NCBI GenBank assembly: GCA_005518185.1
Contig: RKSN01000002.1
Coordinates: 788,452 to 852,451, forward strand
From: Chakrabartia godavariana
Lineage (GTDB): Bacteria; Pseudomonadota; Alphaproteobacteria; Sphingomonadales; Sphingomonadaceae
Length of the DNA stretch: 64,000 nt
Direction of reading: 5' to 3'
The notes below the pieces were generated by a model. It was given only the letters and a program-made list of their open reading frames with translations, did no database searches and was not told where the DNA came from. The position numbers were made by a program, and so were the translations under genes. Positions 13,123 to 42,695 of this stretch are shown in pieces. How positions within the stretch are numbered: position 1 is the stretch's first letter; the number at the start of each line of letters is the position of its first letter.

Positions 13123-14301
13123 TCAGCGGGCGGAGGCCCTGCCCTGTTCGCCTAAACCACGACCGGCGGTTTCCGGTTCCGCAGGCTCCGCGTCCTGCGC
13201 ATCGGCCTCCACCTCATTGTGCCAATATTCGAGGAGGAAGAGCGTGATGGTCAGCACCACGGGGCCAAGAATGATCCCCGCCGGGCCAAAGGCGAAGACC
13301 CCGCCGACCAGCGAGATGAAGGTCGGGATGGTGTGCATCCGGATGCGATTGCCGACAAGAATGGGGTAAAGGAGATTGTCGATGGTCCCGACAACGAGCA
13401 GGCTCCAGGCGAGCAGGACCAGCGCACGGGTTGTCTCCCCCATCGAGAACAGGATGATGACCGCAGGCGCCCAGACGACGAAGGTGCCGAGGACGGGCAC
13501 GATTGCGACGACCCCCATGACAAAACCCCAGAGAAGCGGCGCCGGCAGGCCCAGCATCCAGAACATCGTCCCGCCCAGCATTCCCTGAATCATGGCGACG
13601 GCGACCGTCCCGAACACGGTCGCGCGGATCGTGTCGGCGATACGGCCGTACAGCGTCGTCATTTCCTGCCGGGTGAAGGGCGCGATGCTGGCAAGGATGG
13701 CAAGCGCCGCCCGGCGGTCCCGTACCATGTAGAACAGCAGGTAGAGCATGATGAGCGTGGCAACGATCTGCTCGCCCGATCCCTGAACGATCCCCGGCAG
13801 ATGGTTCGCCACCCAGGAGGATGCCTGCTCGGCAAGGTCGGGAAAGCGGAAGCGGCGGTCGACCCACTCGATCGCCTCGGCGATCCAGCCATTGGACGGA
13901 AACAGATCCCGCCATCCGTTGCTGTCGACCATGCGGGTCAGAAAGGCGGTCGCGTCGCCCGCCTGCACGAGCACCTGCTGCCCCAGCAGAAACAGCGGGA
14001 GGGCAACCGCCAGTACGGCCACCGCAACGCAGACAAACGCTGCCATACCGGGACGCCCGGTCTCTGCAATCAAGGCGCGGTTGAGGGGCGCCAGCAGAAC
14101 CGCGAGCGCCAGCGCCGATGCGAGAGGCGGGAGGAAAGGCTCCACCAGTCGATAGGACAGGAACAGGAACAGCAGCGTGATGCCGATCAACGTGAGGAGG
14201 CTCAGCTGACGGAAGGTCTCCCGCCCCTGCACCAGATGTGAACCGCTCGCCCCCTCGGGCGGGGGCATGGGCGGGCCCGGAAACAGCCGACTGTTCTTCA
14301 T
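13123..14301 (-). CDS. AI-2E family transporter (PerM-like permease)
   Basis: A 392-residue membrane protein with about eight hydrophobic segments, two near the N-terminus (LTLIGITLLFLFLSY, LASALALAVLLAPL) and a cluster in the C-terminal half. Family marks include MLYLLFYMVRD, GRIADTIRATVFGTVAVAMIQG and a C-terminal FGPAGIILGPVVLT. Members export or take up small molecules or Na+/H+; the substrate here is unknown. The start MKNSRLF is preferred: it lies just downstream of an EcfG-type promoter (14335-14360), and a longer frame would begin within the promoter. The small lipoprotein gene follows on the same strand but has its own promoter. Confidence 0.85.
   Translation of the reverse strand: MKNSRLFPGPPMPPPEGASGSHLVQGRETFRQLSLLTLIGITLLFLFLSYRLVEPFLPPLASALALAVLLAPLNRALIAETGRPGMAAFVCVAVAVLAVALPLFLLGQQVLVQAGDATAFLTRMVDSNGWRDLFPSNGWIAEAIEWVDRRFRFPDLAEQASSWVANHLPGIVQGSGEQIVATLIMLYLLFYMVRDRRAALAILASIAPFTRQEMTTLYGRIADTIRATVFGTVAVAMIQGMLGGTMFWMLGLPAPLLWGFVMGVVAIVPVLGTFVVWAPAVIILFSMGETTRALVLLAWSLLVVGTIDNLLYPILVGNRIRMHTIPTFISLVGGVFAFGPAGIILGPVVLTITLFLLEYWHNEVEADAQDAEPAEPETAGRGLGEQGRASAR
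13155..13180 (-). promoter_or_regulatory. EcfG-type promoter of the 13108 lipoprotein gene
   Basis: Minus strand reads GGAAC-N17-GGTT, the consensus known for alphaproteobacterial EcfG sigma factors. It overlaps the 3' end of the upstream permease gene. Confidence 0.7.
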
Positions 14302-14334
14302 GGATGATGTCCCCGCACGGCCCAGCCCATGAAG

Positions 14335-14360
14335 AACCCGAAACGCGTCGCCAATGTTCC
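14335..14360 (-). promoter_or_regulatory. EcfG-type promoter of the AI-2E family gene
   Basis: Minus strand reads GGAAC-N17-GGTT, with the -10 element 34 nt before the ATG at 14301. It is back to back with the plus-strand EcfG-type promoter at 14416. Confidence 0.72.
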
Positions 14361-14415
14361 GTCGCACCCGGAGCGGCGGTTCGTCGCTGGAGCATTAACC
14401 CACAGTAACCACGAA

Positions 14416-14440
14416 GGAACTTCCCCGGTGCTCCCCCGTT
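14416..14440 (+). promoter_or_regulatory. EcfG-type promoter of the 14482 PEP-CTERM gene
   Basis: Perfect GGAAC-N16-CGTT on the plus strand, about 40 nt before the start codon. Confidence 0.75.
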
Positions 14441-14481
14441 GCGGGGGTCCCTCCATGTGTCACCTCAAGAAAGGTCTTCCA

Positions 14482-15018
14482 ATGAGAAGCTTCATACTCT
14501 CTGCCGCCCTTGCGACTGCAGCAGTCATGGTGGCGTCGGCGCCCGCCAACGCCGCGCACACGCTCACGCTGTCGCCGCCTGCCCCTGATGGATCGATTTC
14601 TGGCGTGTTTCAGAATCTCGCCATCGGTGCCGGTGACTTCACCGACACCTATACGTTCAACCTCGCCAATCCCGGTCTGATCAATGCGACGCTGTCGTCG
14701 ATCTTCCAGGCTGCGCTCAACAACAACGTTGATTTCACGAGCGCGACGATCAACGGTCAGGAATTCACGATCGGCTCAACGGGCAATGTGGAGTTCCGGT
14801 ATCTGAACGGCCTGAATATTGCGGCGGGCCCGCAGACGCTGATCATCGCCGGCAAGAGCGGCGGCAATGGGTCCTATGCGGGCACCTTGTCCTATTCGCG
14901 CCTGCTGAACGGCGTGCCTGAACCGGCGGCCTGGGCCACCCTCCTCACTGGCTTTGTTCTGGTCGGCAGCAGCATGCGTCGCAAGCGTATGACGAAGCTT
15001 CCCCGCGTTTCCGCCTAA
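14482..15018 (+). CDS. FxDxF-type PEP-CTERM protein
   Basis: A 178-residue secreted protein: signal peptide ending in APANAA, a beta-rich body opening with IGAGDFTDTYTFNL (the FxDxF box that names one PEP-CTERM subfamily), and a C-terminal sorting signal VPEPAAWATLLTGFVLVGSS followed by Arg/Lys. Such proteins are surface-anchored or released after exosortase processing and are often linked to exopolysaccharide or biofilm. The start MRSFILS was chosen because it gives a proper signal peptide and follows an EcfG-type promoter. A strong hairpin covers the stop codon and a terminator follows. Confidence 0.85.
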   Translation: MRSFILSAALATAAVMVASAPANAAHTLTLSPPAPDGSISGVFQNLAIGAGDFTDTYTFNLANPGLINATLSSIFQAALNNNVDFTSATINGQEFTIGSTGNVEFRYLNGLNIAAGPQTLIIAGKSGGNGSYAGTLSYSRLLNGVPEPAAWATLLTGFVLVGSSMRRKRMTKLPRVSA

Positions 15019-15071
15019 AGGCGGAAACTACCCCGCGGCGCCCCATCCCCCCCGGGGCGCTGCGGGGTTTT
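15007..15071 (+). terminator. Double hairpin terminator after the PEP-CTERM gene
   Basis: A perfect 9-nt-arm hairpin at 15007-15028 straddles the TAA. It is followed by a 14-nt-arm GC hairpin (15031-15044 with 15054-15067, one mismatch) and TTTT, a standard intrinsic terminator. Confidence 0.85.
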
Positions 15072-15101
15072 GATTTGAGCAGCAGGAAGGACCGCGCCCC
15101 C

Positions 15102-15545
15102 ATGTCGATTGTCGAACTGTTTCGCAGCCATCCCATGGGTGTTGATGACGGCCCTTTGCTCCACGCCGTCGCCGAAGCCATTACCTGTGCCATCATCTGC
15201 ACCGGCTGCGCCGATGCGTGTCTTTCAGAAGAAGAGCCTGCCAAACTGGCCCGCTGCATCCGTCTTGACCTGGATTGTGCCGACATCTGCACCGCCATGG
15301 CGGCACAGGCGATGCGCGAACCCCGCACTTCATCCGAACGATTCATATCCTTGCTCCAGCTGTGCGCCGAGTCCTGCGATGCCTGTGCTGCCGAGTGCGC
15401 GCTGCATCAGGACATGCATGACCACTGCGCGATCTGCGCGCGCGCTTGCCGAAAATGCGCACAGGCCTGCCGTGATGCGATCGCGGGGCTGCAGGGTGCT
15501 GCCCCACGTTCGCAGGCCTACGACACACCGGCCGTCACGCTTTAG
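15102..15545 (+). CDS. Cys-rich four-helix bundle copper-binding protein
   Basis: A 147-residue cytosolic protein with about nineteen cysteines spaced along amphipathic helices (CAIICTGCADAC, CADIC, CAESCDACAAEC, CAICARACRKCAQAC). The pattern matches the DUF326/Csp family, which packs many Cu(I) ions inside a four-helix bundle and stores or buffers copper. It lacks an export signal, so it would be a cytosolic copper sponge. The ATG at 15102 follows an AGGAAGG motif; an in-frame TTG at 15075 is less likely. A 58-codon gene follows after 11 nt. Confidence 0.82.
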   Translation: MSIVELFRSHPMGVDDGPLLHAVAEAITCAIICTGCADACLSEEEPAKLARCIRLDLDCADICTAMAAQAMREPRTSSERFISLLQLCAESCDACAAECALHQDMHDHCAICARACRKCAQACRDAIAGLQGAAPRSQAYDTPAVTL

Positions 15546-15556
15546 GGGTCTGACCC

Positions 15557-15733
15557 ATGCCGCGCGGGGACAAGGACGCCTACACCGACAAGCAGAAGCG
15601 AAAGGCCGCGAAGATCGAGGCCGGTTATGAGGCAAAGGGCGTCCCGGAAACCGAAGCCGAGCGTCGTGCCTGGGCGACGGTGAACAAGCAGGACGGCGGC
15701 GGCAAAAAGTCAGGCGCCGGCCGCAAGTCCTGA
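15557..15733 (+). CDS. Small basic conserved protein (58 aa)
   Basis: Short reading frame beginning MPRGDKDAYTDKQKRK and ending in a Gly/Lys/Ser-rich tail (GGGKKSGAGRKS). Very similar small proteins (MPRGDK..YTDKQKRKA..IE.GYE..GV...EAERRAWATVNK) are widespread in Proteobacteria and are sometimes called plasmid stabilization protein without proof. It is highly charged and probably unstructured or nucleic-acid binding (inference). It is likely co-transcribed with the Cys-rich gene 11 nt upstream, and its last 24 nt overlap the 3' end of the convergent superoxide dismutase gene. Confidence 0.8.
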   Translation: MPRGDKDAYTDKQKRKAAKIEAGYEAKGVPETEAERRAWATVNKQDGGGKKSGAGRKS

Positions 15734-16363
15734 TCCGTTGGGCTTCTGATCGGCCCGCGCCGCGCCCCCGCCATCTAGATTCTGTGCGGCAAAAGCCCAG
15801 TTGAGGCACCGCTCCAGCACCGCGTTCGCATAATCCTGCCGATTGTTCCGATAGTCGATGTAATAGGCGTGTTCCCACACGTCGATCGTCAGGAGTGGCG
15901 CTGCCCCGGCATGCACCAGCGGCGTATCCGCGTCGTGGAAGGACCGCACGACCAGCCTGCCCTCTTCCAGCAGCAGCCAAGCCCAGCCGTTGGAAAAATG
16001 GGTGACCGCCTCCTGCCGGAAGGCATCGACCAACGCGGCGACCGATCCAAAGCCGTCATCGATCAACCGAGACAGTTCTGCGCCCGGCGAAACGGGTTCG
16101 GGCGTCAGCGAGTGCCAATAGAAATTGTGGTTCCACGCCTGCGCCGCATTGTTGAACAAAGCACGCTGCTTTCCCGCATGCGCCGCGCGCACGACCTCTA
16201 CCAGCGAGGCATCGCTCAGCCCGGCCTCATCGCGCACCAGTGTGGAGAGCGTCTCCACATATTTGCGGTGATGCTTGCCGTAATGGAAGTCGATTGTTTC
16301 CTGAGAGATGACCGGCGCAAGCGCGGCGGGGTCGAACGGCAAGGGCATCAATGTGAACGACAA
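15710..16363 (-). CDS. Superoxide dismutase (Fe/Mn family)
   Basis: A 217-residue enzyme converting superoxide to hydrogen peroxide and oxygen. Metal ligands are visible in DFHYGKHHRKYV, AQAWNHNFYWHSL and IDVWEHAYYIDYRNNRQDY; the central stretch FSNGWAWLL is a slight variant of the usual GSGWAWL. The start is taken as TTG: an AGGAG box sits 7 nt before it and it yields SFTLMPLPFDP, the family's usual N-terminus, whereas the ATG five codons later has no site at proper spacing. It has an unusual 3' tail of about 20 residues. Its leader contains three hairpins and an apparent terminator (16439-16612), with an EcfG-type promoter further up. Confidence 0.9.
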   Translation of the reverse strand: MSFTLMPLPFDPAALAPVISQETIDFHYGKHHRKYVETLSTLVRDEAGLSDASLVEVVRAAHAGKQRALFNNAAQAWNHNFYWHSLTPEPVSPGAELSRLIDDGFGSVAALVDAFRQEAVTHFSNGWAWLLLEEGRLVVRSFHDADTPLVHAGAAPLLTIDVWEHAYYIDYRNNRQDYANAVLERCLNWAFAAQNLDGGGAARADQKPNGSGLAAGA

Positions 16364-16438
16364 GGGGAGTCTCCTGTTTCTGCAGGAAAAACGCCCGCAG
16401 GCCCGAGCTGTTCCGCAGGCGCCTCCATCCCTGACGCC

Positions 16439-16612
16439 AAAAAAAATGGCCCGCCATCCCGGGGAGGATGACGGGCCGAATAGGTTGGTAAAACCAACCC
16501 TGTCCACTCCGACACCGGGAAACAGGCACCCGGCATCTTGCCAAACTGCTTGACCAACCGCCGAGCCACGGGGGGGGGGAGGGGAGAGCGGGGCAGTTGA
16601 CAGTCTGACGTG
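16439..16612 (-). ncRNA. Putative stress-induced small RNA or structured leader of the superoxide dismutase gene
   Basis: Reading leftward from the likely start near 16612, the transcript passes a hairpin (CCGGG arms at 16515-16519/16529-16533), a perfect 7-nt-arm hairpin (16483-16489/16493-16499) and a 12-nt-arm hairpin (16448-16459/16466-16477, one mismatch) followed by eight T residues. The last is a textbook intrinsic terminator 76 nt before the dismutase start. So it is either a stand-alone RNA of about 170 nt or an attenuating leader. No known RNA family is recognised. Confidence 0.5.
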
Positions 16613-16617
16613 GGATA

Positions 16618-16642
16618 AACTCGCGGCGCACGCCTTTGTTCC
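16618..16642 (-). promoter_or_regulatory. EcfG-type promoter upstream of the RNA candidate and superoxide dismutase
   Basis: Minus strand reads GGAAC-N16-AGTT. The -35 element is perfect and the -10 keeps the GTT core. Confidence 0.55.
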
Positions 16643-16712
16643 ACGCTTCTGAAAAAAATTTGTGTTTTCTGAAAATCGCCGATCCCCAATCAAAGGGGCG
16701 CGACCGAGGAGT

Positions 16713-17195
16713 TCACGCGTCGGGCGAGACGGTCGCGTGTTTGCCCTCCATGTCGCGCTCGACATTCCGGCCCAGCAGCATCTTTGCGATCGACACGGGC
16801 GACATCTCACCGACCCAGATTTCGGCCGCGCCGATGTCCAGTCGCATGACACAGAGTTCGGGGTCGTCGCGGCCACCCTCATACCAGGCCGCGATCTGCG
16901 GCGACCAGAGCCGGTCAATCAGCGCGCGGTCACCTTCCTGTTCGAGCAGGCCGTCGAGGCGGGCAAAAAAATCCTGCTTGCGCGACATGATGCGCGCCAT
17001 CGCCGGGCCGCCCGCGCTGATGTCGTTGCTCCGCTTCGTGAAGATCCACACCGCATTGCGCGACCCTTCATCCGAATAGAGCGTCATGGGGACGTCGCCG
17101 CTGGCATCAGCGGTGCGGCCGACAAAGGCGAAACAATGCCCCTTCAACTCGTCCCACAGCATCTTGCGCAGGTCTTCATCCGAATAGCGTGTCAT
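16713..17195 (-). CDS. Pyridoxamine 5'-phosphate oxidase-like stress protein (flavin-binding split barrel)
   Basis: A 160-residue protein of the general stress protein 26 type: DELKGHCFAFVGR, VPMTLYSDEGSRNAVWIFTKRSND, then WYEGGRDDPELCVMRLDIGAAEIWVG. These proteins bind FMN, FAD or F420 in a split beta-barrel and are linked to oxidative or general stress; they are not true PdxH enzymes. The start MTRYSDED has AAAGGAG at good spacing (ATG 17195); an upstream in-frame codon is rejected. The divergent neighbour is a Crp-type regulator with an EcfG-type promoter, but no such site faces this gene. Confidence 0.85.
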   Translation of the reverse strand: MTRYSDEDLRKMLWDELKGHCFAFVGRTADASGDVPMTLYSDEGSRNAVWIFTKRSNDISAGGPAMARIMSRKQDFFARLDGLLEQEGDRALIDRLWSPQIAAWYEGGRDDPELCVMRLDIGAAEIWVGEMSPVSIAKMLLGRNVERDMEGKHATVSPDA

Positions 17196-17269
17196 CGGCC
17201 TTTCTCCTTTGCGGCGATAACCCCGATGCACGGCAATTGGTCCGGCGCGCCTGTGCATATGCCCCTAAG

Positions 17270-17294
17270 GGAACGTTCGTCCCCGTCGCGTGTT
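17270..17294 (+). promoter_or_regulatory. EcfG-type promoter of the Crp-type gene at 17326
   Basis: GGAAC-N16-TGTT on the plus strand, the same -10 form as seen at phyR and nepR. Confidence 0.65.
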
Positions 17295-17325
17295 CTCTCG
17301 GCGAAAAGAGAAGGGGAATCACGTC

Positions 17326-18060
17326 GTGCTCCAAGACGCCTTTCAGACCCGCGAAAGCTGGGCACCGCCTGTCATGTCTGCCGGCTATGCCGACCGGATG
17401 CCGGGCGTTTTATCCAATCTGCGCCAGCATCAACATCTGGCGCGTGGCGGCGAACGACCTGAACATCTGCTGCAGATCCTGCACGGATGGGCCGGGCGTT
17501 ATCGGCTGCTGTCCGACGGGCGCCGGCAGATCACCGGCCTCTACCTCCCGGGCGATCTGTGCGATCCGTGCTGGCTCGACGGCGGTCGCAGCGTCCAGTC
17601 GGTGGTCGCCCTGACGCCCATTCAGGCCAGTCGCGCGCCCCGCCGCGAGATGGAAACGCAGGCAGCCGTGGATGCCAGCCTTATGAAGGCCATGTGGCGT
17701 CAGGCGCAGTTTTCGCAACAGGTGCAGGCCGAATGGCTGGTCAACCTCGGGCGCAAGAACGCGATCGAGCGCCTGTCACATCTGCTGTGCGAACTCTACA
17801 CGCGCCTGTCACTGGCGGGTGCTGCACATGGGCCGAGCTGCGACATGCCGCTGACGCAGCTCGACCTTGCCGATATCGCCGGGCTGACGCCGGTCCACGT
17901 CAACCGCACGTTGCAGGAAATGCGCGCCATGCGGCTCATCGAACTGCAGTCCCGCCGCCTTACAATCCTCGATTGGGAAGCGCTGCGCCGGATCGCATGG
18001 TTCGACCCGACCTATCTCTCGACGCGTGGATCACGGGAGAATTACCAAGCCGCAGCCTGA
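17326..18060 (+). CDS. Crp/Fnr family transcription regulator
   Basis: A 244-residue regulator with an N-terminal cyclic-nucleotide-like barrel (LLQILHGWAGRYRLLSDGRRQITGLYLPGDLCDP) and a C-terminal winged helix (LTQLDLADIAGLTPVHVNRTLQEMRAMRLIELQSRRLTILD). No Fnr-type N-terminal cysteine cluster is present, and the barrel lacks the Arg-Ser phosphate cassette of cAMP-binding Crp, so the ligand is unknown. The start is set as GTG at 17326, after AAGGGGA and downstream of the EcfG-type promoter; ATG 17374 is an alternative. A hairpin terminator follows. Confidence 0.82.
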   Translation: MLQDAFQTRESWAPPVMSAGYADRMPGVLSNLRQHQHLARGGERPEHLLQILHGWAGRYRLLSDGRRQITGLYLPGDLCDPCWLDGGRSVQSVVALTPIQASRAPRREMETQAAVDASLMKAMWRQAQFSQQVQAEWLVNLGRKNAIERLSHLLCELYTRLSLAGAAHGPSCDMPLTQLDLADIAGLTPVHVNRTLQEMRAMRLIELQSRRLTILDWEALRRIAWFDPTYLSTRGSRENYQAAA

Positions 18061-18080
18061 TGCAGGCAACACCACATGAC

Positions 18081-18110
18081 GGGCCGACCTTTCGCAGGTC
18101 GGCCCTTCTC
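18081..18110. terminator. Bidirectional terminator between crp-type and hemerythrin genes
   Basis: Perfect 10-nt-arm hairpin (GGGCCGACCT / AGGTCGGCCC) with loop TTCGC, followed on the plus strand by TTCTCTGT. It serves the two convergent genes. Confidence 0.75.
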
Positions 18111-18115
18111 TGTGT

Positions 18116-18610
18116 TCAGCTGACTGCTTCCATCTTGGGCGGCGGCAACGTGCCCTCATCGGCCATCGCCATCAGGTCCGCCTTGCGCGCCGACATCTGT
18201 TCGCCAAGCGCGTTCAGATCGACCCCAGCCTTGCGGGCCTGCGCAAACATGGAATCGCGCTGCTTTTCCTCTTCCTTCACGTGATGCTCGATCTGTTCCT
18301 GAAGGACCGTCACCTTGGCCTTGTAAAACGCCTCGTCGGGCTCGGCATCCCGCAGTGCCAGCAGAAGCATCTTGGCCCCGTCATGCTCCACATAGGCCTC
18401 ATTGAGCAGGTCGTCCTCGATCTGCCCGCGCAGGGCCGGATAGAAGATTTCCTCCTCGATCATCGTGTGCACCGTCAGTTCGTCACACAGTTGCGCGACG
18501 ATCTTTTGCTGGGCCGCAGCCCCGCGTGCCTTCTCAAACTTCTCGAACAACATTTCGACCTTGCGGTGATCTTCCGTCAGCAAGTCGATCGCAGATTGTG
18601 CCTTAGCCAT
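18116..18610 (-). CDS. Hemerythrin domain-containing protein
   Basis: A 164-residue protein with the hemerythrin ligand pattern: LLTEDHRKVEMLF, VHTMIEEEIFYPAL, YVEHDGAKMLL and EQIEHHVKEEEKQRDSMF, which provides the His and Glu ligands for a di-iron site in a four-helix bundle. Roles in the family include oxygen or peroxide sensing and protection of iron pools. ATG 18610 has a GGAAGGAGG site. An EcfG-type promoter precedes it, divergent from that of the 18710 gene. A second hemerythrin lies at 26380-26985. Confidence 0.92.
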   Translation of the reverse strand: MAKAQSAIDLLTEDHRKVEMLFEKFEKARGAAAQQKIVAQLCDELTVHTMIEEEIFYPALRGQIEDDLLNEAYVEHDGAKMLLLALRDAEPDEAFYKAKVTVLQEQIEHHVKEEEKQRDSMFAQARKAGVDLNALGEQMSARKADLMAMADEGTLPPPKMEAVS

Positions 18611-18637
18611 AGATGGCCTCCTTCCATGATCAACACC

Positions 18638-18676: not shown

Positions 18677-18701
18677 GGAACTTCAAAATGAATTGCTGGT
18701 T
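18677..18701 (+). promoter_or_regulatory. EcfG-type promoter of the 18710 gene, predicted leaderless
   Basis: GGAAC-N16-GGTT on the plus strand. The -10 element ends 8 nt before the ATG at 18710, so transcription would start at or next to the start codon. Confidence 0.68.
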
Positions 18702-19733: not shown

Positions 19734-19865
19734 ACCCTACCCGAGCAACCTACAGGCCCCTGCAAGGTTCCTGCCTCGACCCGGATCGGTCTTGCAGGAT
19801 GGGCATTCCGTCGACCGACTGACGGGTCCGTCGGACTGTCGGGTTTCCACCGCGCCCAATGTGCA

Positions 19866-20268: not shown

Positions 20269-20293
20269 AACGAAGCGCACGGGACAATGTTCC
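20269..20293 (-). promoter_or_regulatory. EcfG-type promoter of the 20240 gene
   Basis: Minus strand reads GGAAC-N16-CGTT, a perfect match, 28 nt before the ATG. Confidence 0.75.
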
Positions 20294-20304: not shown

Positions 20305-20330
20305 GGAACCCTCCCCGCATTGACCGCGTT
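20305..20330 (+). promoter_or_regulatory. EcfG-type promoter of the 20355 gene
   Basis: GGAAC-N17-CGTT, a perfect match, 24 nt before the ATG. Its -35 lies only 11 nt from the -35 of the divergent promoter. Confidence 0.75.
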
Positions 20331-21384: not shown

Positions 21385-21410
21385 GGAACCGGCGACCCCC
21401 GGGCGTCGTT
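21385..21410 (+). promoter_or_regulatory. EcfG-type promoter of the SemiSWEET gene
   Basis: GGAAC-N17-CGTT, perfect consensus, 28 nt before ATG 21439. Confidence 0.75.
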
Positions 21411-21438: not shown

Positions 21439-21774
21439 ATGCAAGGCGAGGATGTCACCCAGATGGTCGGCGCGATGGCCGCCATCTTATCGACGGCCAG
21501 CTTCGCGCCACAGGCGTGGAAAGTGATCTGGACGCGCGACGTCGAAGGGTTGTCGTCCGGCATGTACATGCTGACCGTCTCGGCATTCGCGCTGTGGCTC
21601 GGTTACGGCATCTTGCGCGCCGATTGGGCGCTGATGCTGCCCAATGGGCTCTGCCTTATCCTCTCGGCGTTCATTCTGGTGATGACCGTCGTGTCGCAGC
21701 GAACACGCGTGCGCATCGCGGAAAAGATCGAAGATGGCCTTCAAAAAGGAATGAGTGCCAAACATGGCGAATGA
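21439..21774 (+). CDS. SemiSWEET-type sugar transporter
   Basis: A 111-residue protein with three membrane helices forming one triple-helix bundle: MVGAMAAILSTASFAPQAWKVI, SGMYMLTVSAFALWLGYGILR and LPNGLCLILSAFILVMTVV. The PQ motif (FAPQ) and the LPN motif are both present. Two copies would dimerise to carry sugar across the inner membrane. ATG 21439 lies downstream of the EcfG promoter; ATG 21463 is also possible. The response regulator gene starts before its stop codon, so both probably share one mRNA. Confidence 0.85.
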   Translation: MQGEDVTQMVGAMAAILSTASFAPQAWKVIWTRDVEGLSSGMYMLTVSAFALWLGYGILRADWALMLPNGLCLILSAFILVMTVVSQRTRVRIAEKIEDGLQKGMSAKHGE

Positions 21775-22123
21775 TACTGATATTCTGGTTGTCGACGACG
21801 ATCCCTTGTTGCGGCTCGGCATGGTCTGCATGCTGCGTGACATGGGCTATCAGGCGATCGCCGCGCAGGACCCGATGCGTGCTTTGCCTATGGTTCATCA
21901 GGGAATCGGCGTCGATCTGCTGATCACCGATTACAGCATGCCCGGGATGACCGGTGTCGAACTGGCGCACAGGATGGTGCGGGCGCGTCCGGGGCTGCAC
22001 GTTCTGATCATGACTGGCCACCAGAAGCTGCCCGATGAGCTGGACCCGGAATGGCGCAAGCTGACCAAGCCCTTCACCGAGTCCGACCTGCGCCGCGAAA
22101 TCGAGGCCATGTCGCTAAGCTGA
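21764..22123 (+). CDS. Single-domain response regulator
   Basis: A 119-residue receiver domain: acidic pair ILVVDDDPLL, phospho-acceptor Asp in LLITDYSMPGMTG, Thr in VLIMTGHQ and Lys in RKLTKPF. It has no output domain. It lacks the FATGUY-type motif of the SdrG proteins that act in sphingomonad stress signalling, yet it is next to phyP (convergent, 9-nt overlap) and shares the EcfG-driven transcript with SemiSWEET. It could be a phosphate sink or relay for the locus (inference). GTG 21755 is an alternative start. Confidence 0.85.
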   Translation: MANDTDILVVDDDPLLRLGMVCMLRDMGYQAIAAQDPMRALPMVHQGIGVDLLITDYSMPGMTGVELAHRMVRARPGLHVLIMTGHQKLPDELDPEWRKLTKPFTESDLRREIEAMSLS

Positions 22124-23806
22124 CGCCAGCACCTCGGCACAGGGAAAACGGACCGACACGGTGCGTCCGCCGCCCGTGGTCTCAGACACCGACAACTGCC
22201 CTTCGAGCTGTGCTGTCAGCGCCTGCATGAGGTCGAGACCCATGCCAGCGGCGCCTTCCCCACCGACCGCCCCGATCCCATCATCCGAGACGGAGAGCAG
22301 CCCGTCCTGCCCTTCACGGACCAGCGTCACATCAATCCGGCCGGTTCGATCCCGGGGAAAGCCGTGGCGGTAGGCGTTGGTGACGGCTTCGACCACGATC
22401 AATGCCGCCGAAACTGCCTGATCGCCTGAAATCACGCCGAGGCTGGAGTGGCAATGCGTCGAGATCTGCGTCGACTGGTAGTTGGAGTGGATCTGCGTGC
22501 ACAGCTCGGTGAAGAGCCGCGCGGTGTCCACCGCGCCGCGTTCACTTTCATCGAGTTCGTAGACCAGCCGCTGAACGAGCGCGAGTGCGCCGACGCGCAA
22601 GCGCGTCTGGGTCATCAGCCGACGCGCCTCGGGATCGGACAGGCGCGACGCCTGCAGACTGACGAGGCTGGTGATCATCTGGAGGTTGTTCTTGACCCGG
22701 TGGTTCACCTCCCGCGCCATCGCGTCCTTGGCGGCAAGCGCACTGCGCAGCGCGTGATCGCGTCCGCTGACTGAACGGGCCATGTCATCGAGATCCTGCC
22801 CCAGCCGCTGCAACTCGACCGGGGCTGTCCGGAAGTCGTCGGGTTCTTCCCGATAGTCGCCCTCGGCCAGATGGCGCACGCGGCGCCCCGCCCGGCGGAG
22901 CCACCGGATCACAAACCGGTCGATCGAGAGCCACAGGGCAAAGCACGTCAGCAACATGGCGATCAACGGCAAGAGCAGACTGTAACGAAACTGTTCGCGC
23001 GAAAACGAGAAGGCCATGCTCTGCGGCTCTGCGTAAAAGACAAAGAGCTGGCCGTCATAAAGTGGCGCCGAGGCGTAGATCCACGTCGCCCCATCCCGCC
23101 CCTTTGCCACGGCCGCCCGCCGATCCGACGCGCGCAGGTTGATACCGCCAAGTGCTGACGGCCCGGACGAAGTGAGGATGTTACCCGACGCATCCGCAAT
23201 CCCAACTAGCGCGCGCGGCGACAGCCGCCGTTCGACGAGCGAGCGTTCAATCCACGAGAGATCGATGGCCGCTGTGAGCGCCCCCTGCCAGGCGCCCGAC
23301 GCACCCAGGACCGGCTGTACCGCGACCAAGATACGGCGCGGGACAACGCGCCCATAAAGCGGCGCGCTGACGACGAAATGCCGGCTGCGTTCCGCCGCGT
23401 TCCACCAGGGCGCCTCTGCCCGCACGCCGCCCATGGTCGGCGCAATGGCGGAACATCTCAGCGCCCCGCCCGCGTCCCAGCGGACGAAGTTGACGATTGG
23501 CATCCGGCCTTCGACGCGGTCTTTCAGGATCGCGCTACACTGGGGCGTCATGTTGCGCACGCGATCGTCGCGCGCGATGGTTTCCAGAATGCGCCGCGCC
23601 ATCATGATCGGGTCGCGCTGTTCCAGTGCGGTCATCGACGCGGAGGCGACGAGCCGGTCTCCGATCATCCGGTGCAGGGTCTCCCGCACGGTCAGGCTCT
23701 GGTAGATGCTCAGAAGTGCGAAGGGGAGAAGCGCCGCCCCCACTGCCAGCAGAAGCGTCGCATTCAATGTCAGCCTGTTGCGCCGACCTGCCTTGGGCGA
23801 AATCAC
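22115..23806 (-). CDS. phyP: PhyP-type membrane sensor histidine kinase/phosphatase (HisKA_2)
   Basis: A 563-residue sensor with a membrane segment at about 15-36, a periplasmic sensing domain of about 240 residues, a second membrane segment (LLLPLIAMLLTCFALWLS), a HAMP-like linker, and a HisKA_2 box MAREVNHRVKNNLQMITSLVSLQ with an ATPase domain (VVEAVTNAYRHGF, GMGLDLMQALTAQL). In Sphingomonas the gene after ecfG encodes PhyP, which controls PhyR phosphorylation and mainly acts as a PhyR phosphatase. The 4-nt ATGA overlap with ecfG supports co-expression. The phospho-His is conserved. The name rests on locus position and architecture. Confidence 0.85.
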   Translation of the reverse strand: MISPKAGRRNRLTLNATLLLAVGAALLPFALLSIYQSLTVRETLHRMIGDRLVASASMTALEQRDPIMMARRILETIARDDRVRNMTPQCSAILKDRVEGRMPIVNFVRWDAGGALRCSAIAPTMGGVRAEAPWWNAAERSRHFVVSAPLYGRVVPRRILVAVQPVLGASGAWQGALTAAIDLSWIERSLVERRLSPRALVGIADASGNILTSSGPSALGGINLRASDRRAAVAKGRDGATWIYASAPLYDGQLFVFYAEPQSMAFSFSREQFRYSLLLPLIAMLLTCFALWLSIDRFVIRWLRRAGRRVRHLAEGDYREEPDDFRTAPVELQRLGQDLDDMARSVSGRDHALRSALAAKDAMAREVNHRVKNNLQMITSLVSLQASRLSDPEARRLMTQTRLRVGALALVQRLVYELDESERGAVDTARLFTELCTQIHSNYQSTQISTHCHSSLGVISGDQAVSAALIVVEAVTNAYRHGFPRDRTGRIDVTLVREGQDGLLSVSDDGIGAVGGEGAAGMGLDLMQALTAQLEGQLSVSETTGGGRTVSVRFPCAEVLASA

Positions 23807-24378
23807 CGCGGTGTCGTGAGCACCGGTGCCCGAGGCTTCAGGGGATCCGCCTCGTCATCAAGTGCCGGCCCGTCGATCAGCGCAGCAAGCGCCACGCGCC
23901 CACGGGCCAGACGACTTTTGATCGTGCCAATGGCACAGCCCATGATTTCGGCAGCTTCCTCATAGGACACGCCATTGGCGCCGATGAGGAGAAGGACTTC
24001 GCGCTGTTCCGCCGGCAGCTTCAGCAAGGCGGCCTGCACGTCCTGAACGTTCAGTCCGTCATGCTGGGCAGGTGCGGCGACGAGCACACGCTCCGCCACC
24101 TCGGGGTCCCATGAGACCATGCGGGCGTTCTTGCGCAGCGTGGTGTAATAATGATTGCGCAGGATCATGAACATCCAGGCGCGGAAATTGGACCCCGCAG
24201 CATAGCTCTGCCGCGCAGCCCAAGCCCGCGTCATCGCATCCTGCACCATGTCATCAGCCATGTCCCGGTTGCCGCACAGGCCGCGCGCAAAAGCGCGCAA
24301 CGACGGAATGATCGCCACCAGCTGGTCGCGAAAGTCCTTATCGTCATGGGGGGCGGCTTTGGGCGCTTCCTCGGTCAT
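23803..24378 (-). CDS. ecfG: EcfG-type RNA polymerase sigma factor of the general stress response
   Basis: A 191-residue ECF sigma factor: region 2 (ARGLCGNRDMADDMVQDAMTRAW, then NFRAWMFMILRNHYYTTLRK) and region 4 (ALLKLPAEQREVLLLIGANGVSYEEAAEIMGCAIGTIKSRLARGR). The EcfG class directs transcription from GGAAC-N16/17-CGTT promoters; matching sites abound in this window. The gene follows nepR with an ATGA overlap and is followed by phyP with the same. It is autoregulated if the promoter at 24685-24709 works as predicted. Only the usual sequences are seen; no truncation. Confidence 0.95.
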   Translation of the reverse strand: MTEEAPKAAPHDDKDFRDQLVAIIPSLRAFARGLCGNRDMADDMVQDAMTRAWAARQSYAAGSNFRAWMFMILRNHYYTTLRKNARMVSWDPEVAERVLVAAPAQHDGLNVQDVQAALLKLPAEQREVLLLIGANGVSYEEAAEIMGCAIGTIKSRLARGRVALAALIDGPALDDEADPLKPRAPVLTTPR

Positions 24379-24566
24379 TCCGACGGCGCAGTCCCATCCA
24401 GTTTGCGCTCGATTTCGCCCAGCAGACGCAGGAAATCGTCCGGCAAAGGCTCCGCGACCACCTCGTCATGCAGGCGCCGGAGCGCGGCCCCGATGGGATC
24501 ATCAATGGGCATCATCGGTTCTCTTGCGGCCCCGGCATCCGCCTTGGACCCACTCTTGTCCGGCAT
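24375..24566 (-). CDS. nepR: NepR anti-sigma factor
   Basis: A 63-residue protein containing the NepR core IGAALRRLHDEVVAEPLPDDFLRLLGEIERKL. NepR holds EcfG inactive; phosphorylated PhyR binds NepR in place of the sigma factor and frees EcfG. The ATG at 24566 has AGGAG at 9 nt; the frame continues upstream to 24683 but that part has no ribosome site and is unlike NepR N-termini. Leader from the EcfG promoter to this ATG is about 110 nt. The gene order nepR-ecfG-phyP is typical of sphingomonads. Confidence 0.93.
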   Translation of the reverse strand: MPDKSGSKADAGAAREPMMPIDDPIGAALRRLHDEVVAEPLPDDFLRLLGEIERKLDGTAPSE

Positions 24567-24684: not shown

Positions 24685-24709
24685 AACAGTTAGCGAACGA
24701 TTATGTTCC
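24685..24709 (-). promoter_or_regulatory. EcfG-type promoter of nepR-ecfG-phyP
   Basis: Minus strand reads GGAAC-N16-TGTT, giving positive autoregulation of the operon. Its -35 is only 8 nt from the -35 of the divergent phyR promoter. Confidence 0.75.
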
Positions 24710-24767: not shown

Positions 24768-25550
24768 ATGCCATTCATGAAATCGGTCGCGGCAGAATTG
24801 CCTTATCTGCGGCGCTATGCGCGCGCCGTGACGGGGGCGGCTGATCTGGGCGATGCCGCCGTGCGCGAAACGCTGGAGGCACTGCTGGAGGCGCCGCGCG
24901 AGTTCGACATGACCCGCCCGCCCCGGCTCGAGCTTTACCGGATATTTCACTACCTCTGGCGGTCGGAGACGATCTCGGCATTGAAGTCGGGTGGCCCGGT
25001 TGCGCATCTGACGCCCCGTTCGAGACAGGCCCTTCTGCTGACGGCGGTCGAAGGATTCTCCGTTGACGATGCGGCGGAAATTCTAGCGATCTCGTCCGAT
25101 ATTGTGCGCGACGATATCGACGCGGCGCGCGCACAGCTAGCCGACCAGCTCTGTTCCGACGTGATGATCATCGAGGATGAAACGATCATCGCCCTCCACA
25201 TCAAGTCGATCGTGCGCGAGATCGGACACCGCGTCGTCGGCGTGTCGCGCACGCACAGCGAGGCCGTGGAGATGGCACGATCAACGTCGCCGGAGCTGGT
25301 GCTCGCTGACATTTGCCTTGCTGACGGGTCGAGCGGGATCGACGCGGTCAAGGAGATTCTGGCGAGCGTCGACGTGCCCGTCATCTTCGTCACGGCTTTT
25401 CCGGAACGTCTGCTGACAGGCGAGCGTCCGGAGCCGACCTACCTCATCACCAAGCCGTTCGATGCGGCCGTTCTGACGGCCACCATCGCGCAGGCCTTGC
25501 TCTTCCACCGCGAGGCACAGGCGCTCGGTCGGGATCGCGCCGCCGCCTGA
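24768..25550 (+). CDS. phyR: PhyR, anti-anti-sigma response regulator
   Basis: A 260-residue protein with an N-terminal sigma-like domain (about 1-125) that mimics EcfG and a C-terminal receiver (about 130-255). The receiver shows VMIIEDETIIALHI, the phospho-acceptor Asp181 in LVLADICLADGSSGIDAV, FVTAF and YLITKPF. Phosphorylation frees the sigma-like part to bind NepR. ATG 24768 has GGGAGGA; an upstream TTG (24738) would lie inside the promoter and is rejected. It is divergent from nepR. Confidence 0.95.
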   Translation: MPFMKSVAAELPYLRRYARAVTGAADLGDAAVRETLEALLEAPREFDMTRPPRLELYRIFHYLWRSETISALKSGGPVAHLTPRSRQALLLTAVEGFSVDDAAEILAISSDIVRDDIDAARAQLADQLCSDVMIIEDETIIALHIKSIVREIGHRVVGVSRTHSEAVEMARSTSPELVLADICLADGSSGIDAVKEILASVDVPVIFVTAFPERLLTGERPEPTYLITKPFDAAVLTATIAQALLFHREAQALGRDRAAA

Positions 25551-25603: not shown

Positions 25604-25628
25604 GGACCATTCACGCGTCGTCCACGTT
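25604..25628 (+). promoter_or_regulatory. Possible EcfG-type promoter of the PRC-barrel gene
   Basis: GGACC-N16-CGTT: perfect -10 but one mismatch in the -35 element. It lies 32 nt before ATG 25661. Confidence 0.45.
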
Positions 25629-26985: not shown

Positions 26986-27057
26986 GAGCGAGTCCTTTCC
27001 CATTGATGCTGCGGATGAAAGCGCCTCTGCCCGCGCCTTGTTCCGTGACCGCCCGCA

Positions 27058-28073: not shown

Positions 28074-28099
28074 AACCGCGCGCGACGCCGGAAAGTTCC
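28074..28099 (-). promoter_or_regulatory. EcfG-type promoter of the 28040/27553 operon
   Basis: Minus strand reads GGAAC-N17-GGTT, 33 nt before ATG 28040. Confidence 0.72.
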
Positions 28100-29572: not shown

Positions 29573-29676
29573 GGGCCGGACCCCTCCTTCTGGTTCGGAT
29601 ATCTTGCGCGCCATCATCCTGTCCGCTGCCGGGAACCGAGCTTAGCCTGCCCGGTCCCCGCCTGCGTTATCATGGA

Positions 29677-32022: not shown

Positions 32023-32339
32023 TGATTGAATTCTCCCGTGCAGCGTCGCTCCGGAAACCGGGGCAACCTGAGATTGCGCTGAAAACTGCGGCGATCGGGG
32101 AAGTCGCGCCGCGGCGGTCCGATCAGTTGATCAACGGCGCGGGCATTGGTTCGTTCCCAAAGGGCGCGACTTCCTAACCTGAATTAGGCCCGCTTCAGCA
32201 CGTCGTCGGGGTAAAACTGTGTCCGCATCAATCTAATCATGCGCAGCCCGGGAATTGGTCTTAACTTTCTGGTGTCAATTACCGCCATAGTAACATAAGT
32301 TGATTCCATATCGGCGGCGTACGGCCTGGGAGAGCGCGC
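32023..32339. other. Divergent intergenic region upstream of the fusion gene and fixL-like gene
   Basis: About 317 bases with no supported gene. The minus strand has an EcfG-type promoter (32133-32157). The rest is somewhat AT-richer. A TTGATTCCATATC stretch near 32299 only half-matches an Fnr/FixK box. Confidence 0.55.
32133..32157 (-). promoter_or_regulatory. EcfG-type promoter of the glycosyltransferase/mutase fusion
   Basis: Minus strand reads GGAAC-N16-CGTT, perfect consensus. Confidence 0.7.
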
Positions 32340-37845: not shown

Positions 37846-37935
<90 letters not shown>

Positions 37936-41369: not shown

Positions 41370-41432
41370 ACGGCGATCCGCATACGGGTCGCCCTTGGGG
41401 TGGCCCGACAGCCTGACTTGATCAGGCATGAA

Positions 41433-41475
41433 GGGAGACGGGACCACCCCCAAAGGGCGGTCCGGCTCCCTTTTT
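41433..41475 (+). terminator. Intrinsic terminator after rpmA
   Basis: Interrupted GC hairpin (GGGAG and GGACC arms pairing with GGTCC and CTCCC) ending in TTTTT, 64 nt after the stop codon. A small palindrome (41411-41427) lies just before it. Confidence 0.7.
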
Positions 41476-41594
41476 CTTTCTCCCTTCACCCGTCCGTCGC
41501 CATCCGGGCACATTTGCCCGCTGGCCGGTTTGAAATGTCCCGCAGCCGTCACATCTGCACGGTAGCGGGGCGCGGAACGAAGGAGTGTTTCACC

Positions 41595-42161
41595 ATGTTC
41601 GCAAGAACAGAACGCCTGCTGCTGAGACCGGGCTGGGCCGACGATGCCGCCGCCCTGCATGACGCCATCGCCCATGAGGCCGTGGCGATGAAGCTCGCAC
41701 GCGTGCCCTGGCCCTATGGCGTGGACGATGCCGCCGCCTATCTCGCCGCGCAGGCGGAACGCGCGCATCCGCACATGCTGATCTTTGCACGGACGGCGGG
41801 CAAGCCGCGTCTGGTCGGGGGAATCGGTCTGGAGGTCACCGGCCGTGCCGCCGAACTCGGTTTCTGGATCTCGCCGCCTTATTGGGGCCTTGGCTTTGCG
41901 ACCGAGGCCGCCCGTGTCGTCGTCGATGCCGCGCGCAGCTCGCTGCCGTGCCGCAAGCTCGTCGCGCATCATTTTGTCGACAACCCGGCGTCGGGGAACG
42001 TGCTGCGCAAGCTCGGCTTCTGCCGGACCAGCCGCGTGATCGCCCGGCCGTGCCTCGCGCGCGGGCGCGACGTGCCGAGCTATGACTATGTGCTCGACTT
42101 TGCGGGTCAGGATGACTGTCCGGACGACACTATGACGGGCCGTACGCTCCTCGCGGCCTGA
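41595..42161 (+). CDS. GNAT family N-acetyltransferase (RimJ/RimL type)
   Basis: A 188-residue acetyltransferase: TERLLLRPGWADDAAALHDAI at the N-terminus, LGFWISPPYWGLGFATEAARVVVDAA (acetyl-CoA binding Q/RxxGxG/A loop variant) and VDNPASGNVLRKLGFCR, typical of the RimJ/RimL branch that acetylates protein N-termini or small amines. ATG 41595 has AAGGAG. It is not linked to other genes; substrate unknown. Confidence 0.85.
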   Translation: MFARTERLLLRPGWADDAAALHDAIAHEAVAMKLARVPWPYGVDDAAAYLAAQAERAHPHMLIFARTAGKPRLVGGIGLEVTGRAAELGFWISPPYWGLGFATEAARVVVDAARSSLPCRKLVAHHFVDNPASGNVLRKLGFCRTSRVIARPCLARGRDVPSYDYVLDFAGQDDCPDDTMTGRTLLAA

Positions 42162-42179
42162 CCGGGGCCACGCGTCCGG

Positions 42180-42638
42180 TCAGTCGCATTTCTGATAGGT
42201 AAAGCTCGATCTGCTGCCGCCTTCGGTCCGCACGAGGCTGGTGCCGCCCTGCGCCAGTTCGAACGTCTGTTCGTTGCGCCAGCGCTGGCCCTCCCCGTCA
42301 AAGTCGAAGGTGCCGGAAACTTTGGTCGGTGACTGGACCTTGAGGCCCGGCGTCACGCCGCGCGCCTCGTAAAAGCGCACGGTCTTGGCGTCGATCGTCA
42401 TCAGCCCCTTGGCGGCGGCATCGCCGCGACAGTCGGCCGTGACCATGCTCCAGCGCCCGAGAAAGGCGGTCGGAAAGCCGGAGACGCGTTCCCCGCGCGC
42501 TTCGGCGGCGACCGAGGGCGGCACATTGACCGGGCCGGCCGGTGTGCTGGCATTGCCGCCACGCACATCGGCGGTCGTGACGGAGGCATTATCGCACCCC
42601 ACAAGAAGGAACGGCAGGACGCAGAACAGGTGTCGCAT
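42180..42638 (-). CDS. Lipoprotein of unknown function
   Basis: A 152-residue predicted lipoprotein with lipobox FLLVGC in a short signal peptide. The mature part has FLGRWSMVTADCRGDAAAKGLMTIDAKTVRFYE, which looks like a small beta-barrel of the kind seen in uncharacterised sphingomonad lipoproteins, with a C-terminal Cys (QKCD) that may pair with the Cys in ADCRG. The ATG at 42638 was preferred; the longer frame to 42668 would run into the promoter. An EcfG-type promoter lies just upstream. Confidence 0.78.
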   Translation of the reverse strand: MRHLFCVLPFLLVGCDNASVTTADVRGGNASTPAGPVNVPPSVAAEARGERVSGFPTAFLGRWSMVTADCRGDAAAKGLMTIDAKTVRFYEARGVTPGLKVQSPTKVSGTFDFDGEGQRWRNEQTFELAQGGTSLVRTEGGSRSSFTYQKCD

Positions 42639-42669
42639 GGTCGATCCTCCGAAGACGTGTCGGCGCATA

Positions 42670-42695
42670 AACCGCGTGAGGGATCGGCCGGTTCC
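42670..42695 (-). promoter_or_regulatory. EcfG-type promoter of the 42638 lipoprotein gene
   Basis: Minus strand reads GGAAC-N17-GGTT, 31 nt before the ATG. It lies far from the stress cluster. Confidence 0.68.

What the first reader, a model, noticed from the sequence alone, without database searches (positions are those of the whole stretch)
13155..42695. A general stress response island: about sixteen EcfG-type promoters clustered around ecfG, nepR and phyR
Sites of the form GGAAC-N16/17-NGTT with strict spacing precede sixteen transcription units: 13108, 14301, 14482, the 16612 RNA/SOD, 17326, 18610, 18710, 20240, 20355, 21439, nepR, phyR, 27091, 28040, 32022 and 42638, with a weaker one at 25661. 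Twelve to fourteen fall within 15 kb of ecfG. Targets include two-gene units of unknown function (18710-19672, 27284-28040), a SemiSWEET, a Crp-type regulator, a hemerythrin, surface lipoproteins and PEP-CTERM proteins. A regulator with its regulon clustered around it is unusual, since EcfG regulons are usually scattered.
Basis: partly seen in the sequence, partly recalled or inferred. Interest (0 to 1): 0.75.

Follow-up and report, generated by a model that had tools for sequence, protein, structure and literature searches.

The report
Stress regulon clustered around its regulator
In this sphingomonad-like bacterium the master switch of the general stress response sits inside a block of about 20 kilobases in which nearly every gene seems to carry that switch's own start signal, including a small RNA, and related bacteria show the same tendency, mostly in weaker form.

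Summary
The window has 19 exact GGAAC-N16/17-NGTT sites, all between 13155 and 42695; 18 face a gene (16) or an RNA candidate (2), and 41574 is rejected. The genome (3.17 Mb) has 107, so this interval holds 19 against 0.84 expected; wrong spacings give 94 genome-wide, none in the window. The locus is a complete PhyR-NepR-EcfG core. The claim that such clustering is unusual is only half right: in 59 alphaproteobacterial phyR loci the sites peak at phyR and fall away with distance (median 7 per 21 kb; wrong-spacing control 1.2). One of the 59 exceeds this window's 14. Within the family it stands out (25 other loci: 1-6), though another genus (G052) has 16 sites in 40 kb. Close congeners keep a compact backbone with 4-5 sites. 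Here 19 genes fill five gaps in it; 14 of their 15 presumed units have an exact or one-mismatch site. Ten of 36 homologues examined elsewhere in the family keep an exact site, and few of the homologues lie near phyR. The RNA near 16612 is conserved in three congeners with its EcfG site, C-rich 5' part and terminator, resembling Caulobacter GsrN. EcfG dependence is untested; gain and loss are not separated.

The parts
23803..24378 (-). ecfG, ECF sigma factor of the general stress response
   Evidence: Pfam Sigma70_r2, r4_2 and PhyR_sigma2; 49-86% identity to EcfG-like genes beside phyR in the relatives listed
24375..24566 (-). nepR, anti-sigma factor (a start at 24626 is also possible)
   Evidence: Pfam NepR PF18557 E=3e-9
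24768..25550 (+). phyR, anti-anti-sigma response regulator (ATG start; listed ORF begins at TTG 24738)
   Evidence: Pfam PhyR_sigma2, PhyR_sigma-like, Response_reg
22115..23806 (-). HisKA_2 sensor kinase, likely kinase of PhyR
   Evidence: Pfam HisKA_2, HATPase_c
21764..22123 (+). single-domain response regulator, backbone gene
   Evidence: Pfam Response_reg; same place in L099, L102, L101
13155..13180 (-). EcfG site, 46 nt upstream of small lipoprotein gene 12797-13108 (site lies in the 3' end of 13123-14301)
14335..14360 (-). EcfG site, 33 nt upstream of AI-2E-family transporter 13123-14301
14416..14440 (+). EcfG site, 41 nt upstream of PEP-CTERM protein 14482-15018
16390..16414 (-). EcfG site, 41 nt upstream of Fe/Mn superoxide dismutase 15710-16348
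16618..16642 (-). EcfG site of the small RNA; GGAAC-N16-NGTT also in the 3 of 3 congeners whose homologue is complete
16440..16612 (-). small RNA gene (GsrN-like), ends approximate: C-rich 5' part, conserved hairpins, terminator hairpin at about 16448-16477 followed by a T run
   Evidence: homologues in G085, G086, G089 and part in G087; paired changes; fold z=-2.9 for 16445-16590; no Rfam family there at E<=5
17270..17294 (+). EcfG site, 31 nt upstream of Crp-family regulator 17326-18060; kept in L099, L102, L101
18638..18663 (-). EcfG site, 27 nt upstream of hemerythrin 18116-18610
   Evidence: 6 of 17 homologues examined have an exact site
18677..18701 (+). EcfG site, 8 nt upstream of 18710-19210 (one long helix plus strands) and YetF/DUF421 protein 19220-19672
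19747..19771 (-). EcfG site without an ORF; faces a strong hairpin (about 19670-19741), candidate second RNA
   Evidence: z=-5.0; conservation not checked
20269..20293 (-). EcfG site, 28 nt upstream of 19911-20240 (no Pfam family)
20305..20330 (+). EcfG site, 24 nt upstream of 20355-20708 (no Pfam family)
   Evidence: in L099 and L102 the homologue follows crp directly and has no exact site
21385..21410 (+). EcfG site, 28 nt upstream of SemiSWEET 21439-21774
24685..24709 (-). EcfG site of nepR-ecfG
   Evidence: kept in L099, L102, L100, L101, L074
24718..24742 (+). EcfG site of phyR, 8 bp from the nepR -35 box
   Evidence: kept in L099, L102, L100, L074; no exact site in L101
27058..27082 (+). 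EcfG site, 8 nt upstream of 47-aa protein 27091-27234
28074..28099 (-). EcfG site, 33 nt upstream of PA2169/DUF2383 protein 27567-28040 and Transgly_assoc (GlsB-like) protein 27284-27553
32133..32157 (-). EcfG site, 110 nt upstream of glycosyltransferase/UDP-galactopyranose mutase 29677-32022; kept in L099 and L100
42670..42695 (-). EcfG site, 31 nt upstream of 42180-42638; isolated outlier
17219..17243 (-). one-mismatch site (GGACC) upstream of Pyrid_ox_like (general-stress-protein-26 type) 16713-17195
25604..25628 (+). one-mismatch site (GGACC, CGTT) upstream of PRC-barrel protein 25661-26341
27019..27044 (-). one-mismatch site (GCTT) upstream of second hemerythrin 26380-26982
29634..29658 (-). 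one-mismatch site (GGGAC) upstream of phospholipase-D-family protein 28103-29617

Best explanation
This is the core locus of the alphaproteobacterial general stress response grown into a local regulon. Stress makes a HisKA_2 kinase phosphorylate PhyR; PhyR takes NepR away from EcfG (established for the family, inferred here). Free EcfG then starts its own operon, phyR and about fifteen further units packed within 19 kb (13155-32157), each from its own GGAAC-N16/17-NGTT promoter: hemerythrin, SOD, a SemiSWEET, PA2169/GlsB-like proteins, a lipoprotein, a PEP-CTERM protein, a Crp-type regulator and a GsrN-like small RNA; four more units have a one-mismatch site. Evolutionarily (inferred), a small cluster (small RNA, crp, nepR-ecfG, phyR, glycosyltransferase/mutase) is kept in close congeners, while promoter-bearing stress genes come and go around it; this genome carries 19 such genes in five gaps. 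The small RNA probably pairs through its C-rich 5' part with G-rich leaders, as GsrN does (inference).
For: Core genes by Pfam. 19 exact sites against 0.84 expected, none with wrong spacing; 0 of 100 shuffles of the window reach 19. 18 of 19 face a gene or an RNA candidate. Outside the window 54 of 79 classified sites lie inside genes. Five sites kept at the same places in L099 and four in L102, with GGAAC and GTT intact while spacers differ. Class-wide: N16 328 and N17 112 matches in 59 loci against 17-43 for each of 18 other spacings, falling with distance from phyR. Homologues keep the site: 10 of 36 examined have an exact site within 220 bases upstream, against 2 of 36 for eight wrong spacings together; GlsB-like genes on other contigs of G085 and G086 (about 50% identity, possibly paralogues) each have one, and the PRC-barrel gene next to phyR in G050 has one. 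Another cluster with overlapping genes: G052 (16 distinct sites in 40 kb, with DUF2383 and the 18710-YetF pair); by reading translations also L127 and L173. Small RNA conserved from promoter to terminator in three congeners and in part in a fourth. In Sphingomonas melonis Fr1 a cAMP-binding (Crp-type) gene, a PRC-barrel gene and a general stress protein 26 are among the top EcfG-dependent genes (PMC6599016, passages with part of Table 1).
Against: No expression data: EcfG dependence is inferred from motif, spacing, position and conservation. Gain and loss are not separated: SOD homologues lie 4-6 kb from phyR in six of seven other genera and in G050, and DUF2383 and GlsB-like homologues lie near phyR in Sphingorhabdus (L104), so some 'inserted' genes may be old and lost in the congeners. 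26 of 36 homologues examined have no exact site, and most of the 93 family matches were not examined for one. The strict motif misses weaker promoters, so the share of the regulon inside the island is not known; in Fr1 166 genes count as likely direct targets (PMC6599016). L101 lacks an exact phyR site. 42670 is 10.5 kb from its nearest accepted neighbour and may be a scattered member.
Confidence: 0.82

Rival explanations
1. Ordinary locus: the core GSR genes are autoregulated and the remaining matches are chance hits of a motif that fits the base composition.
For: The core promoters are known from the family; 54 of 79 classified sites outside the window are inside genes, and outside the window right and wrong spacings are equally frequent (88 and 94).
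Against: 19 observed against 0.84 expected; zero wrong-spacing matches in the window; 18 of 19 directly in front of a gene or RNA candidate; at most 6 in 100 shuffles.
Confidence: 0.03
2. A horizontally acquired genomic island that brought the stress genes in one piece.
For: The 19 extra genes have no room in the L099 and L102 loci, and 14 of 17 window proteins searched have no match at E<=1e-8 in G085, G086 or G089.
Against: The extra genes sit in five separate gaps of a conserved backbone; GC of the five inserted stretches 0.629-0.636 against 0.616-0.649 for the backbone; no integrase or transposase domain in the 30 proteins scanned; nearest homologues are in different relatives.
Confidence: 0.07
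3. Ancestral large island, eroded in the congeners; this genome is the one that kept it.
For: SOD near phyR in six of seven other genera and in G050; DUF2383 and GlsB-like homologues near phyR in L104, UDG and SemiSWEET in L103, PLD and DUF2383 in L127; G052 has a comparable cluster.
Against: The congener loci that could be read (L099, L102, L101 over most of the region, L100 and L074 in part) lack the extra genes, including the more distant L101. Of 93 family matches outside G000 to five island proteins, 42 are on the same contig as a phyR and 3 of these, in G052 and G061, lie within 25 kb of it.
Confidence: 0.3
4. The clustering is adaptive because EcfG made at its own gene acts first on nearby promoters (local concentration or shared chromosomal domain).
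For: Density falls off with distance from phyR over about 10 kb in 59 loci, and different lineages gather partly overlapping genes.
Against: No direct evidence; co-inheritance, or easier recruitment of promoters next to existing ones, would give the same pattern.
Confidence: 0.2

Closest known systems
PhyR-NepR-EcfG general stress response locus (ECF15), e.g. Sphingomonas melonis Fr1 and Sphingopyxis granuli TFA
   Same: Same core proteins with a kinase nearby; nepR-ecfG operon divergent from phyR with EcfG promoters on both, the usual layout as stated in PMC4814048 (passage); same promoter consensus GGAAC-N16-CGTT (PMC7083833) or GGAAC-N17-20-GTT (PMC6599016).
   Different: The top Fr1 targets seen in Table 1 carry gene numbers from 0072 to above 3500 (PMC6599016), which suggests a scattered regulon; here 17 predicted promoters lie within 15 kb of ecfG.
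GsrN, sigma-T-dependent small RNA of Caulobacter, and the predicted GsrN-like RNAs of Rhizobiaceae (PMC5869019, passages)
   Same: EcfG-type promoter, position near the GSR core, C-rich 5' region, 3' terminator.
   Different: No sequence link to GsrN shown; about 170 nt instead of 106; strong matches only in one genus. The paper reports no apparent gsrN-like gene in Erythrobacter litoralis, its outgroup.
Other dense EcfG-site clusters at phyR found here: a Pararhizobium MAG (L173, 15 sites), Roseibium polysiphoniae (L113, 13), family member G052 (16 in 40 kb)
   Same: Many EcfG sites around phyR. In L173 10 of 15 sites and in G052 13 of 18 site rows have an ORF within 200 bases by a simple finder; L113 was not looked at gene by gene.
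   Different: Gene sets overlap only in part: DUF2383 and the YetF pair in G052; small membrane proteins by reading.

Membership tests
PhyR-NepR-EcfG GSR core locus | PhyR with sigma-like domain plus receiver | tested here: met
   PF22029, PF22233, PF00072
PhyR-NepR-EcfG GSR core locus | NepR anti-sigma factor in operon with EcfG | tested here: met
   PF18557; nepR and ecfG reading frames overlap by 4 bases
PhyR-NepR-EcfG GSR core locus | EcfG-type promoters on nepR-ecfG and phyR | tested here: met
   24685(-) and 24718(+)
EcfG regulon membership of the 18 units | consensus promoter at strict spacing in front of the unit | tested here: met
   18 sites; wrong-spacing control zero
EcfG regulon membership of the 18 units | loss of induction in ecfG/phyR mutant | not testable with these tools
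   no expression data
GsrN-like small RNA | near-consensus EcfG site upstream | tested here: met
   GGAAC-N16-NGTT in 4 of 4 aligned sequences that reach the promoter, own included
GsrN-like small RNA | proximity to the phyR/ecfG locus | tested here: met
   8 kb from phyR here, 4 kb in L099 and L102
GsrN-like small RNA | exposed cytosine-rich 5' loop | tested here: inconclusive
   C-rich run in all four sequences; only partly unpaired in the predicted fold
GsrN-like small RNA | evidence of transcription | not testable with these tools
   no RNA data
GsrN-like small RNA | sequence similarity to GsrN | not tested
   GsrN sequence not compared; no Rfam match there at E<=5
Horizontally acquired genomic island | deviating composition | tested here: not met
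   GC 0.629-0.636 inserted, 0.616-0.649 backbone
Horizontally acquired genomic island | one contiguous insertion | tested here: not met
   five gaps in a conserved backbone
Horizontally acquired genomic island | integrase, transposase or flanking repeats | tested here: inconclusive
   none among the 30 proteins scanned; not all genes scanned, repeats not searched

The most novel reading that the evidence does not exclude
The neighbourhood of phyR/ecfG is a recurrent gathering place for the EcfG regulon across Alphaproteobacteria: stress genes carrying their own EcfG promoters accumulate there independently in different lineages, producing 'GSR islands' of up to about 18 units, because proximity to the sigma factor's gene is itself favoured.
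Probability: 0.4. Interest if true: 0.7.

Novelty: new variant of a known kind. Interest (0 to 1): 0.55.

Why it matters
It turns an anecdote (targets near the regulator) into a measurable property: density of EcfG promoters against distance from phyR, with a spacing control, can be computed for any alphaproteobacterial genome and gives cheap predictions of stress genes of unknown function and of small RNAs. It also offers a natural comparison for asking whether distance from the sigma factor's gene matters for induction: homologous genes with the same kind of promoter lie beside phyR in one genome and elsewhere in another.

Tried and rejected
Chance: rejected by genome count, wrong-spacing control and shuffles. 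Site 41574 as a promoter: rejected, it overlaps the ribosome-binding site and start codon of a GNAT gene, and a similar string with the same layout occurs in G085. Reversed-pattern control as printed by the pattern tool (159 genome-wide) was set aside because it is more frequent than the motif itself, probably for compositional reasons; wrong spacing and shuffles are fairer. Family-wide search with the small-RNA model: 30 of 119 genomes have a match at E<=0.01 (own included), but those outside the training sequences score 20-32 bits against 111-141 for the four sequences the model was built from, and look like GC-rich hairpins; treated as chance. Rfam scan: no family for the RNA. Fold of 18710-19210 (pLDDT 82): one long helix plus strands, weak matches only (TM about 0.2-0.5), no function assigned. 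Divergent promoter pairs as copied modules: the sequences between them do not look alike on reading; no test run.

Literature: seven searches of open-licence PubMed Central papers. Neither the titles and abstract openings listed nor the passages I read (PMC6599016, PMC7083833, PMC4814048, PMC8103513, PMC5869019, PMC3892343) describe clustering of the EcfG regulon around phyR as a general property. PMC5869019 says that predicted gsrN homologues are typically near the core genes. No paper was read whole, and subscription reviews were not available.

Counting notes: a palindromic site is found on both strands; without such doubles the 59-locus mean is 7.27 instead of 7.46, median unchanged, window count unchanged. 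The 59 are those of the best 80 of 174 PhyR relatives whose locus is full length. Of 88 sites outside the window 79 were classified; 7 were not listed by the tool and 2 listed ones were not fetched. The 18 genomes were chosen mostly from the high end. Grouping of the 19 extra genes into 15 units is by hand.

Full report
What is there. The window lies in contig C2 (788452-852451) of a 3.17 Mb genome in five contigs. The nearest named records in a PhyR search are uncultured Sphingomonadales MAGs, then Sphingobium and Sphingorhabdus. Pfam identifies EcfG (23803-24378), NepR (24375-24566), PhyR (24768-25550) and a HisKA_2 kinase (22115-23806) with a single-domain response regulator (21764-22123).

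The sites. An exact scan finds 19 GGAAC-N16/17-NGTT sites, all between 13155 and 42695. Sixteen precede a coding sequence by 8 to about 118 bases, two face non-coding RNA candidates (16618, 19747) and one (41574) is an accident of a ribosome-binding site and start codon. Four further units have a one-mismatch site in the right place: 16713-17195 (general-stress-protein-26 type), PRC-barrel, second hemerythrin and phospholipase-D-like. A one-mismatch scan gives 78 hits in the window, so these four are weaker evidence. Three divergent pairs have -35 boxes only 8-13 bases apart and a fourth pair 55.

Is it more than chance? The genome has 107 exact sites, 88 of them outside the window; the expectation for 13155-42695 is 0.84. 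Shuffles of the window give 2.3 on average and 6 at most. The wrong-spacing control has 94 genome-wide and none in the window, so outside the window correct spacing (88) is no more frequent than wrong spacing. Of 79 outside sites classified with a simple codon-usage gene caller, 54 are inside genes, 25 are not, and 16 of those 25 have a gene start within 250 bases. Some of the genes behind them look like known kinds of EcfG target by reading the translations only: a glycosidase, a PRC-barrel protein and an EgtD-like methyltransferase. So roughly half of the plausible strict-consensus promoters lie in about 1% of the genome. Weaker promoters were not counted genome-wide.

Is it unusual? In 59 full-length phyR loci (about 21 kb each, by their titles mainly Rhizobiales, Caulobacterales and Rhodobacterales relatives) the median is 7 sites and the mean 7.3, control 1.2. 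Summed over these loci the counts are 328 for N16 and 112 for N17, against 17 to 43 for each of 18 other spacings; density falls from 2.0 per 2 kb just before phyR to 0.2-0.4 at 8-10 kb, control about 0.06 there. Eighteen genomes counted whole give 2.6- to 15-fold enrichment; the window gives 24-fold. One of 59 loci (L173, Pararhizobium MAG, 15) has more than the window's 14 within 10 kb of phyR. In 25 other loci of the family the count is 1 to 6 (G052 and G061 are not among them); 20 background stretches hold 12 sites in all, against 66 in the 20 phyR stretches of the same genomes. But G052, another genus of the family, has 16 distinct sites from 21 kb before to 8 kb after phyR, near a DUF2383 gene and the 18710-YetF pair; 13 of its 18 site rows have an ORF within 200 bases. 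So the tendency is general, and this is an extreme but not unique case in its family.

Comparison with congeners. L099 and L102 (PhyR 84-86%) have the order AlgH-type gene (name recalled), small RNA, crp, 20355 homologue, response regulator, kinase, ecfG, nepR, phyR, then the glycosyltransferase/mutase (L099 only) and a PAS kinase, with five and four sites: small RNA, crp, nepR, phyR and, in L099, the mutase. L101 (PhyR 68%) has AlgH-type gene, small RNA, crp, response regulator, ecfG, nepR, phyR, then another gene; 982 bases between the first two were not identified, and its phyR has no exact site, while a fourth match lies inside phyR. L100 and L074 show parts of the same layout. G082 has only the C-terminal part of phyR next to the AlgH-type gene, and five of the 13 genus genomes (G079, G080, G081, G084, G088) gave no full-length PhyR. 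Relative to L099, the window has 19 additional genes in five gaps and 11 additional exact sites inside those gaps. Of 17 window proteins searched in G085, G086 and G089, 14 have no match at E<=1e-8; the others are distant AI-2E relatives, the backbone gene 20355 and a GlsB-like gene on another contig. Five island proteins searched in all 13 genomes of the genus match only here and in G050. History is not settled: SOD lies 4-6 kb from phyR in six of seven other genera looked at (G052 is the exception) and about 5 kb away in G050, and DUF2383 and GlsB-like genes lie near phyR in Sphingorhabdus (L104), so loss in the congeners is as likely as gain for some genes.

Regulon membership often goes with the gene. 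Of 36 homologues of island genes in 29 loci from across the family, 10 have an exact site within 220 bases upstream, against 2 with any of eight wrong spacings; 26 have none. Best is the hemerythrin, 6 of 17. The GlsB-like genes of G085 and G086, on other contigs than phyR, each have a site about 67 bases upstream. The 18710 homologue of G052 has a site at 26 bases. Yet of 93 family matches to five island proteins outside this genome, 42 lie on the same contig as a phyR and only 3 of these within 25 kb of it.

The small RNA. A 261-base query finds matches in 5 of 13 genus genomes: its own, G085, G086, G089 and part in G087. In G085 and G086 similarity starts at the EcfG site and ends at the terminator. 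The alignment shows GGAAC-N16-NGTT in all four sequences that reach it, a C-rich run, a conserved hairpin and a terminator; five of 35 predicted pairs show a change on both sides, others are broken in one sequence. A covariance model built from these four scores them at 111-141 bits, by construction; other matches are weak. It meets two of the three criteria by which PMC5869019 recognised GsrN-like RNAs outside Caulobacteraceae (site and proximity; transcription unknown), and a C-rich 5' part is present. That paper (passages) says Erythrobacter litoralis has no apparent gsrN-like gene.

How it most likely works. Shown here: genes, motif, spacing, position, conservation. From established knowledge of the family: the PhyR-NepR partner switch. 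Inferred: EcfG dependence of each unit, targets of the small RNA, and why the genes gather. Judgement: a real and strong example of a tendency that I did not find described as such in the searches named above.

Noticed in passing
window 19660-19771 (-): An EcfG site with no ORF faces a hairpin with z=-5.0 and a C-rich loop, between the convergent genes YetF and 19911-20240; candidate second small RNA or terminator.
   Followed up: partly
window 18677-18710 and 27058-27091: Only 8 bases separate the -10 box from the start codon, suggesting leaderless or nearly leaderless messages.
   Followed up: no
window 15102-15545: Small cysteine-rich protein with a weak, below-cutoff match to the Csp1 copper-storage family (TIGR04401), behind the PEP-CTERM gene.
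   Followed up: no
window 37849-37935 (-): tRNA gene outside the main cluster.
   Followed up: no
L244 (G050 C1 about 3300000-3302050): In G050 the homologues of the hemerythrin, Pyrid_ox_like and DUF2383 genes form a second small cluster about 590 kb from phyR, with two EcfG sites.
   Followed up: partly
L280 (G033): Hemerythrin, 18710-like and YetF genes lie in tandem far from phyR without an exact EcfG site, suggesting that the three travel together.
   Followed up: partly
L180 (G000 C1 75589-75658): A divergent pair of EcfG sites outside the island, one in front of a 642-aa glycosidase-like gene (by reading).
   Followed up: partly
G079, G080, G081, G084, G088, G082: Five genus genomes (all fragmented MAG-like assemblies) show no full-length PhyR and a sixth only the C-terminal part: possible loss of the stress response core, or assembly gaps.
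   Followed up: no
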